Part shown: positions 1 through 27,682 of the stretch, one piece after another
How positions within the stretch are numbered: position 1 is the first letter of the stretch
Layout of the letters: each line of letters opens with the position of its first letter
DNA from: JBDROU01 sp043809745 [NCBI: bacterium]
Lineage (GTDB): Bacteria > Elusimicrobiota > JBDRMW01
Assembly (NCBI GenBank): GCA_043809745.1
Contig: JBDROU010000013.1
Coordinates: 1-31,368 of the forward strand
DNA: 31,368 bases
Direction of reading: 5' to 3'
The notes under the pieces: model-generated
The model's database searches: none
Seen by the model: the letters and a program-made list of their open reading frames with translations, nothing else
Told to the model about the DNA's origin: nothing
Position numbers and translations under genes: made by a program

Positions 1-141
1 GAGATGGTAATGCCTGGAGATAATGTGGAGTTGGAAGGAGAGTTGATAACCCCGATAGCCATGGAGAAGGGCTTAAGGTTTGCGATAAGAGAAGGCGGCC
101 ATACGGTAGGAGCTGGGGTGGTTTCTGAAATTATTGAGTAA
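1..141 (+). CDS. tuf: Elongation factor Tu, C-terminal end (partial)
   Basis: Only the last 46 codons are present; the gene enters from the left edge in frame 1 and stops at TAA 139-141. The residues [20 protein letters not shown], followed by [20 protein letters not shown], are the highly conserved domain 3 tail of EF-Tu, which delivers aminoacyl-tRNA to the ribosome. It lies 37 bp upstream of rpmG, and the order tuf-rpmG-tRNA-Trp-secE-nusG-rplK-rplA is a classic bacterial arrangement. Identification is secure despite the truncation, which is only the window edge. Confidence 0.97.
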
Positions 142-27364: not shown

Positions 27365-27476
27365 ATTGGGCGAGATGGGATTCCTCCTCACCCGCTCGCT
27401 ATCGCTCGCTCCTTCGGAGCCGGCCGCCCTCGCTTCTCCTGCCGCTGGCAGCGCTCGGGTCGTCTTCGAATCCCAT
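27365..27476. repeat. GC-rich palindromic element with tRNA-Leu-derived ends
   Basis: A block of about 84 bp (27384-27467), about 70% G+C by my count, sits in a roughly 35% G+C background. It is bounded by inverted repeats ATGGGATTC (27375-27383) and GAATCCCAT (27468-27476). The left boundary plus 10 more bases, ATTGGGCGAGATGGGATTC at 27365-27383, is an exact 19-bp copy of the tRNA-Leu 3' end at 27535-27553. The core carries internal small palindromes (GCTCCTTCGGAGC, TGCCGCTGGCA) and CGCT-rich repeats. No protein is credible in it. It looks like a short mobile or tRNA-targeting hairpin element. Confidence 0.75.
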
Positions 27477-27536
27477 ATTATTTTTGATTTCAGTAAGAGT
27501 TTAGGTTGCTTAGATTAGGTATTATGCTGAAAAAAT

Positions 27537-27620
27537 TGGGCGAGATGGGATTCGAACCCACAAGGTTTTGCAACCACAGGTTCCTGAAACCTGCGTGTCT
27601 GCCAGTTCCACCACTCGCCC
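27537..27620 (-). tRNA. tRNA-Leu (anticodon CAG)
   Basis: On the minus strand the acceptor GGGCGAG (5' end at 27620) pairs with CTCGCCC (down to 27538), with discriminator A at 27537, as Leu tRNAs need. The anticodon stem CAGGT/ACCTG encloses loop TTCAGGA with anticodon CAG. A long variable arm (class II) follows and the T loop is GGTTCGAATCCC. CCA is not encoded. It reads codon CUG. Confidence 0.95.
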
Positions 27621-27682
27621 AAATATAACTTACAAATCGTAATTATAGAGTTAAATTCAACCTTAGTCAAGCTTGTTTTAGA

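What the first reader, a model, noticed from the sequence alone, without database searches (positions are those of the whole stretch)
27365..27620. GC-rich palindromic element carrying inverted copies of the tRNA-Leu 3' end
An 84-bp block, about 70% G+C by my count in an AT-rich genome, is bounded by ATGGGATTC and GAATCCCAT. These are the T-arm sequence of the adjacent tRNA-Leu in the two orientations. The left boundary extends to a 19-bp exact copy of the tRNA 3' end (27365-27383 versus 27535-27553). The right end reads TTCGAATCCCAT, again T-loop sequence. This suggests a small element that captures or targets tRNA 3' ends, or a relic of site-specific integration. The core has no protein and is built of short CGCT-rich repeats and hairpins.
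Basis: partly seen in the sequence, partly recalled or inferred. Interest (0 to 1): 0.72.

Follow-up and report, generated by a model that had tools for sequence, protein, structure and literature searches.

The report
tRNA-end insertion with folded site
Next to a leucine tRNA gene sits a small GC-rich folded DNA element carrying a second copy of that tRNA's tail, with the same layout as a family of mobile elements, some carrying genes, found at tRNA genes of tiny bacteria called Patescibacteria.

Summary
On the minus strand the order is tRNA-Leu, 58-nt spacer, inverted T-loop copy (12 nt), GC-rich core, second copy of the tRNA 3' end (19 nt exact). The window's own genome is not held, so I looked for the layout elsewhere. 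It recurs as a mobile family in Patescibacteria. A covariance model built from it matches 44 of 286 genomes, with strong covariation (104 distinct rows). Many copies sit 3' of a tRNA or tmRNA and carry that gene's own 3' end (nt 57-76). The inverted arm tracks the host tRNA's T-loop. In one genus 11 tRNA genes carry the element in some species and not in others; in five of them the flanks show a clean insertion. At four tRNA genes the folded site closes kilobase units with genes (restriction-modification, HNH and others), once two units in a row. The best reading for the window is a cargo-less insertion ending in an attC-like folded site. Membership of the window copy rests on anatomy: the model does not find it, and its core resembles the Patescibacteria cores only weakly. 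The enzyme, and whether DNA or RNA folds, are inferred and not shown.

The parts
27536..27621 (-). tRNA-Leu (CAG), the target gene, intact
   Evidence: ARAGORN; Rfam tRNA
27535..27553 (-). copy 1: 3' end of the tRNA-Leu gene from the T-loop onward (nt 57-73 plus 2 nt), left direct repeat
   Evidence: 19/19 identical to 27365-27383; numbering by the usual tRNA scheme (own knowledge)
27477..27534 (-). AT-rich spacer with a weak hairpin (TTTCAG...CTGAAA), in the place of the hp1 hairpin of the Patescibacteria copies
   Evidence: sequence; fold of 27477-27536 -2.0 kcal/mol
27465..27476 (-). A': inverted copy of tRNA nt 54-65 (minus strand ATGGGATTCGAA)
   Evidence: exact 12-nt inverted repeat of 27545-27556
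27384..27464 (-). GC-rich structured core with nested hairpins; no ORF of 80 aa or more
   Evidence: (71.4% G+C over 27384-27467), fold, ORF list
27365..27383 (-). copy 2: displaced tRNA-Leu 3' end, right direct repeat; imperfect extension to 27359

Best explanation
The block is a small insertion at the 3' end of tRNA-Leu: the cargo-less form of a tRNA-targeting cassette whose right end is a folded recombination site. Shown in Patescibacteria: insertion places [hp1 hairpin - A' - core] between two copies of tRNA nt 57-76, so the tRNA stays intact; A' is partly complementary to the same tRNA's T-loop, and in several copies to its CCA end; the core folds into a conserved structure; some copies close kilobase units with genes. 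Inferred: a tyrosine recombinase recombines the folded site with the tRNA gene, much as integron integrases use folded attC sites; the cargo-less copies are cassettes reduced to their site; the window copy works the same way.
For: Same order of parts in the window and at Pro, Lys, Ser, Arg and Leu tRNAs of Patescibacteria. 14 of 40 tRNAs in the fetched part of G281 have a copy of their own 3' end within 500 bp. Eleven tRNA genes have the element in some species of one genus and no copy within 420 nt in others; the flank continues cleanly after copy 2 in Ala-ggc, Arg-cct, Arg-gcg, Leu-gag and Pro-cgg. In the 897-kb contig of G248, 5 of 5 model hits lie 3' of a tRNA on the same strand with 19-20 of 20 nt of its tail, two of them 5.0 and 9.0 kb away. 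Gene-carrying units at tRNA-Pro, -Gln (two in a row), -Glu and -Lys with defence-type cargo among others. Structure: 90.3% of cells paired against 65.0% shuffled, 763 cells changed on both sides against 215.6, 0 of 500 shuffles. A' fits the own T-loop better than other tRNAs' (7.91 against 6.48 of 9 over 75 loci; 8.12 against 6.67 over the 51 loci that keep a core-like end; 0 of 2000 permutations each). Matches to a tyrosine recombinase: 18 of 18 genomes with elements, 10 of 16 without (Fisher one-sided 0.006; related genomes, so only a hint).
Against: Model R1 does not find the window copy: 6.7 bits, E 3.5, arms only, third of six hits, two chance hits above it. Window core against the Patescibacteria cores: best 9 of 1000 shuffles in nine comparisons, weak. 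The window A' lacks the part that matches the CCA end. No enzyme is identified. The one tyrosine recombinase found beside an element (L234) lies between tRNA-Asp and a displaced tRNA-Asp 3' half that reaches back to the anticodon arm, so it belongs more likely to an ordinary island; among the 16 of 30 ORFs of the other long units scanned with Pfam none is a recombinase. How A' comes to match each new tRNA is unexplained. G.T cells outnumber A.C cells 179 to 32, which fits RNA as well as single-stranded DNA of the tRNA-sense strand, whereas integrons use the attC bottom strand (PMC2727003).
Confidence: 0.52

Rival explanations
1. An ordinary tRNA-gene genomic-island scar: a tyrosine integrase used the tRNA 3' end as attB, the island was later lost, and the GC-rich hairpins are what remains of an attP region.
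For: Restored tRNA plus displaced 3' fragment is the classic island signature, and tandem arrays and a T-stem class of sites are on record (Islander, PMC4383910, passages). Such an island, with integrase, lies next to an element in L234.
Against: The folded core recurs with strong covariation in 104 distinct sequences and stands in gene-free forms at many different tRNAs of one genome; near-identical cores sit beside different tRNA ends (L029 and L034); the inverted arm matches the tRNA.
Confidence: 0.22
2. A functional or guiding RNA linked to tRNA genes: the structure works as RNA, for example in RNA-guided integration or tRNA processing, with A' pairing to the tRNA.
For: One pair is G.T in 89 of 103 cells, and 179 G.T against 32 A.C cells point to folding of the tRNA-sense strand; A' matches the tRNA in two blocks with an unmatched middle.
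Against: Presence varies among species of one genus, so the tRNA does not need it; cargo ORFs run in both directions, so transcription of the site is not assured; no RNA data.
Confidence: 0.16
3. A REP-like or IS200/IS605-type non-coding element moved by a HUH transposase.
For: Small, palindromic, many copies; a REP-like palindrome is itself inserted in copy 2 at L029 and L099.
Against: Joined to tRNA or tmRNA ends with ~20-bp direct repeats and in places gene cargo; longer than the 20-40 bp given for REPs (abstract in the listing, PMC3733652). HUH transposases were not searched.
Confidence: 0.05
4. Chimeric assembly or library artefact in the window.
For: Single GC-rich block in an AT-rich contig; own genome not held for checking.
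Against: The same order of parts is found in independent genomes, and the window block carries its own tRNA's sequence in both orientations.
Confidence: 0.02

Closest known systems
Integron gene cassettes and attC sites
   Same: Folded, sequence-variable site ending a gene-carrying unit; imperfect inverted arms with an unpaired middle; units in a row; a tyrosine recombinase is the plausible enzyme
   Different: The platform is a tRNA or tmRNA gene rather than attI beside intI; arms match the host tRNA; no GTTRRRY R box; the tRNA-sense strand seems to fold; no integron integrase found beside it
tRNA/tmRNA-gene genomic islands (Islander set)
   Same: Intact tRNA, displaced 3' fragment as direct repeat, T-loop-side boundary, arrays
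   Different: Many copies are gene-free and about 100-140 bp between the repeats; a conserved folded site with an inverted tRNA-matched arm precedes the displaced fragment; no integrase found inside the long units in the part scanned
Additive flexible genomic islands with tRNA-end repeats (Actinomarinales PMC7771536, Methylophilaceae PMC10872708)
   Same: Gene cassettes at tRNA genes marked by direct repeats of part of the tRNA
   Different: No folded site is described in the passages read
Tycheposons
   Same: Cargo elements at tRNA genes with tyrosine recombinases
   Different: 4-200 kb (as told in PMC10872708); no such folded site in the passages read

Membership tests
Integron / attC | Integron integrase (IntI) next to attI | tested here: inconclusive
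   The recombinase of L234 scores 36.1 bits against a 265-bit cut-off for integron integrase and lies in what looks like an ordinary island; IntI was not searched across genomes
Integron / attC | R boxes GTTRRRY / RYYYAAC | tested here: not met
   By reading the sequences: sites end in tRNA sequence (GAATCC...CCA); consensus recalled
Integron / attC | Folded site of 57-142 nt with two paired boxes, unpaired spacer and variable terminal structure | tested here: met
   Patescibacteria copies: fold, pairs; size range from PMC2727003. The window fold has only the inner arm
Integron / attC | Arrays of units with gene cargo | tested here: met
   Two units with 3.6 and 1.3 kb of cargo in a row at tRNA-Gln, one case; not in the window
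tRNA-gene genomic island | Restored tRNA plus displaced 3' fragment in the same orientation | tested here: met
   Window; Patescibacteria
tRNA-gene genomic island | Integrase gene inside the island | tested here: not met
   No ORF of 80 aa or more between the repeats in the window. In the long Patescibacteria units other than L234 only 16 of 30 ORFs were scanned with Pfam, none an integrase
Patescibacteria tRNA-end element (this report) | tRNA - spacer - inverted T-loop copy - GC-rich core - second copy of own 3' end | tested here: met
   Window
Patescibacteria tRNA-end element (this report) | Core recognised by covariance model R1 | tested here: not met
   E 3.5, arms only. The G040/G288 copies used have another core type; no model was built for it
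REP/RAYT palindromes | 20-40-bp palindrome tied to a Y1 (HUH) transposase | not tested
   No HUH search was run

The most novel reading that the evidence does not exclude
A separate gene-cassette system in Patescibacteria and at least one other lineage: tRNA and tmRNA genes serve as attachment platforms, units end in a folded site, and the site's arm is rewritten to match whichever tRNA it enters, so that one element family can occupy many tRNA genes of a genome without harming them.
Probability: 0.38. Interest if true: 0.9.

Novelty: new variant of a known kind. Interest (0 to 1): 0.8.

Why it matters
If right, some of the most genome-reduced bacteria hold an overlooked way of taking up genes, restriction-modification genes among them, at their tRNA genes. 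It would join two known worlds, tRNA-gene islands and integrons, and raises a testable puzzle: how a mobile site comes to carry an arm matched to each new tRNA. It also gives a search key (tRNA tail copy plus folded site) for finding cargo.

Tried and rejected
The 19-mer GAGCGAGCGATAGCGAGCG from the core was searched in viral contigs: 17 loci, none with a tRNA or tmRNA gene and none with the layout, so the motif is a common hairpin and no marker. A 20-nt arm pattern found 0; a looser pattern found 3 places with 43-48% G+C cores and no layout. Plasmids gave 10 records with short partial matches, phages none. SmpB as a bait gave 7 distant loci, so the window's own clade was not reached. In 194 genomes of the phylum of G001 (a Verrucomicrobia record) the arm pattern gave 19 places in 18 genomes; 2 of the 18 loci fetched hold any tRNA; I treat them as chance. 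R1 found 0 of 74 in the phylum of G005 (the tool warns that such an empty answer shows little). A search with the L234 recombinase matched genomes with and without elements, so no enzyme could be singled out. Considered and dropped: an Rfam RNA (no match to the core) and a plain transposon target duplication (does not explain the inverted arm). Rows dropped: from the G281 set the Leu-caa copy (broken core) and two long copies (Met 98 nt, Leu-gag 99 nt) were left out of A1, and Arg-tct was trimmed by 3 nt. The 75 loci include a few false ones (tandem Val tRNAs, a Verrucomicrobia locus); one search repeats the count without 26 of 77.

Full report
The block is as described. On the minus strand the order is tRNA-Leu(CAG) 27621-27536, spacer, ATGGGATTCGAA (27476-27465), GC-rich core, then GAATCCCATCTCGCCCAAT (27383-27365), which repeats the tRNA 3' end from nt 57 on. 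The 84-bp block is 71.4% G+C in a 35.9% window. The two other window tRNAs have no such copy. Folding energy is not unusual for the composition, and no Rfam family matches the core. No whole genome is held for the window. It carries glyQ and glyS; GlyQ (PF02091) was found in 0 of 20 Patescibacteria genomes sampled, so the window is probably not from that phylum. Omnitrophota is my guess from recall.

The arm pattern GGGATTCGAN{50,80}GAATCCC was searched in 286 genomes of the phylum of a Gracilibacteria record (Patescibacteria): 7 genomes, 11 places. Seven of the 11 lie just 3' of a tRNA (Pro twice, Ser twice, Lys, Arg, Leu); L026, L028 and L034 have no tRNA found in the fetched 3 kb, and L031 lies at a contig edge. 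Reading them showed one recurrent layout: a tRNA, a short spacer often with a hairpin, an inverted T-loop copy, a GC-rich core, and a second copy of the same tRNA's 3' end. The second copy is complete in L027, L032, L033 and L035, interrupted by an insert in L029 and L036, and degenerate in L030. Two cores of genome G288 differ at 2 of 73 positions yet adjoin different tRNA ends (L029, L034).

In the fetched part of genome G281, 14 of 40 tRNAs have a copy of their own last 18 nt within 500 bp at 14 of 18 or better; 12 are exact (a first batch gave 8 of 21 at 15 of 18 or better). The inverted arm follows the tRNA: TTCAAATCC gives GGATTTGAA, TTCGACTCC gives GGAGTCGAA, TTCGATTCT gives AGAATCGAA. 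Where the tRNA has G at nt 55 the arm has the matching C (Gly of G294; Met-labelled tRNA at L125), although the base at that place next to copy 2 is different. A second, outer part of the arm (TGGnnn) fits the CCA end in several copies, with an unmatched middle (my reading). Over 75 tRNA-plus-copy loci the arm fits its own T-loop at 7.91 of 9 on average against 6.48 for other tRNAs' loops; 35 are perfect and 12 fit at fewer than 7; 0 of 2000 permutations reach the observed sum. With only the 51 of 77 loci that keep a core-like end the figures are 8.12 against 6.67, again 0 of 2000.

Fourteen cores (12 from G281, one each from G239 and G098) were aligned (A1) and a structure written by hand: P1 (arm with copy 2), P2, and P3 with a bulged A and an AGCA loop. 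Pairs are supported on A1. Model R1 collected 121 matches, 104 distinct rows, from 99 loci, most of them fetched because they match R1: 90.3% of cells paired against 65.0% shuffled, 763 cells changed on both sides against 215.6, covariation 0.588 against 0.159, 0 of 500 shuffles. That alignment is fitted to the structure and its rows are related, which favours it; slid versions reach 44.3% paired at most. G.T cells outnumber A.C cells 179 to 32, or 88 to 31 without the pair that is mostly G.T, so the tRNA-sense strand is the likely folding strand.

R1 matches 44 of 286 Patescibacteria genomes at E 1e-3 or better, up to 16 times in one with strict filters; 3 of 3 in the family of G281 with 19, 5 and 8 matches; and 4 of 4 in the genus of G161 with 12, 6, 7 and 4. 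Of 28 loci, each the best match of one of the 44 genomes, 15 have a copy of the 20-nt tail at 16 of 20 or better within 350 bp upstream, and 20 have a tRNA or tmRNA within 400 bp upstream on the same strand. tmRNA lies upstream in L121, L152 and L228; only L152 has a complete tail copy.

tRNA genes of the four congeners, matched by anticodon, give the test of insertion. Eleven (Ala-ggc, Arg-cct, Arg-gcg, Arg-tcg, Arg-tct, Gln-ctg, Gly-ccc, Leu-gag, Leu-taa, Lys-ctt, Pro-cgg) have the element in at least one species and no copy within 420 nt in at least one other. In Ala-ggc, Arg-cct, Arg-gcg, Leu-gag and Pro-cgg the sequence after copy 2 in filled species continues as the sequence directly after the tRNA in empty ones; in the other six I did not establish this. 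G153 Ala-ggc has a different insert with a tail copy, G153 Gly-ccc a broken element, and G161 Gln has its copies further away. The hp1 hairpin is shared between loci (L157 and L165 at Leu-taa, L144 in the Gln array), so it belongs to the unit.

Of 24 elements examined in larger stretches, some without a tRNA nearby close long units. With a 20 of 20 tail copy at an intact tRNA: tRNA-Pro with 4.2 kb (L223), tRNA-Gln with 3.6 and then 1.3 kb in a row (L227), tRNA-Glu with 9.0 kb (L232) and tRNA-Lys with 4.9 kb (L233). L230 has 0.9 kb beside a tRNA remnant, not beside its tRNA-Ile. In L234 a 5.8-kb stretch after tRNA-Asp begins with a 333-aa phage-integrase-family recombinase, but it ends in a displaced tRNA-Asp 3' half that reaches back to the anticodon arm, and the element follows only then; I read this as an ordinary island next to an element. 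I scanned 20 of the 37 ORFs listed with Pfam; 11 had a family. Cargo includes a type IIG restriction enzyme-methyltransferase, a DNA methylase, an HNH protein, DUF4145, glyoxalase, cupin and CYTH proteins. In the single 897-kb contig of G248, with 49 tRNA/tmRNA genes, R1 gives five matches, and 5 of 5 sit downstream of a tRNA with that tRNA's tail at 93, 91, 128, 4970 and 9043 bp. Tails of the 49 genes gave 20 non-tRNA copies at 17 of 20 or better, against 5 in 147 shuffled tails; several of the 20 are the same places seen from different tRNAs.

The enzyme is not settled. A search with the L234 recombinase found relatives in 28 of 34 genomes: 18 of 18 with elements and 10 of 16 chosen as without R1 matches (Fisher one-sided 0.006; the genomes are related, so this is only a hint). 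The proteins I could extract (19 of 28 loci) read as Xer-like in both groups, by my eye. I infer a tyrosine recombinase from the folded site, the tRNA target and this hint.

Back to the window: the order of parts, the exact direct and inverted copies and the GC-rich core agree with the Patescibacteria layout, most closely with the core type in G040 and G288. R1 does not find it beyond the arms, and two chance hits score higher. The shared stretch CCGGCTCCGA..GGAGCGAG with G040 is reached by 9 of 1000 shuffles, the best of nine comparisons. I therefore call it the same kind by anatomy and leave homology open.

Literature: ten searches in open-access PubMed Central papers; in the titles and abstract openings listed (capped lists, the longest search holding 465 papers) I saw no account of such a folded tRNA-end site in Patescibacteria. 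Subscription papers and preprints are not held. I read passages, not whole texts, of PMC2727003 (attC), PMC4383910 (Islander), PMC10872708 and PMC7771536. The last two describe cassettes or islands at tRNA genes with tRNA-end repeats in other bacteria, so that part is known; the folded, tRNA-matched site is what I did not find described.

Noticed in passing
L029 and L099, inside copy 2: A REP-like palindrome (CTGCCTG(A/C)CGGCAGGCAGG) is inserted within the displaced tRNA end in two different Patescibacteria genomes, at nearly the same position.
   Followed up: no
L100 and L107 (genome G294): The structured core sits inside the T-loop of a tRNA copy, with a short hairpin in place of copy 1 and the inverted arm, next to an intact tandem tRNA; perhaps an intermediate or alternative form.
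   Followed up: partly
G248:C1 near 849407, 382205 and 456377: Tail copies (18 of 20) 1.1, 0.75 and 2.8 kb downstream of Ser, Arg and Gly tRNAs lack the R1 core; these may be ordinary island ends.
   Followed up: no
G153 Ala-ggc (L205): A different insert, without the R1 core, also ends in a copy of the tRNA tail.
   Followed up: no
L234 (G114), tRNA-Asp: An apparent ordinary island with a tyrosine recombinase ends in a displaced tRNA-Asp half, and an element sits on that displaced half.
   Followed up: partly
L001-L017, viral contigs: The hairpin motif GAGCGAGCGATAGCGAGCG recurs in 17 viral contigs in unrelated settings.
   Followed up: no
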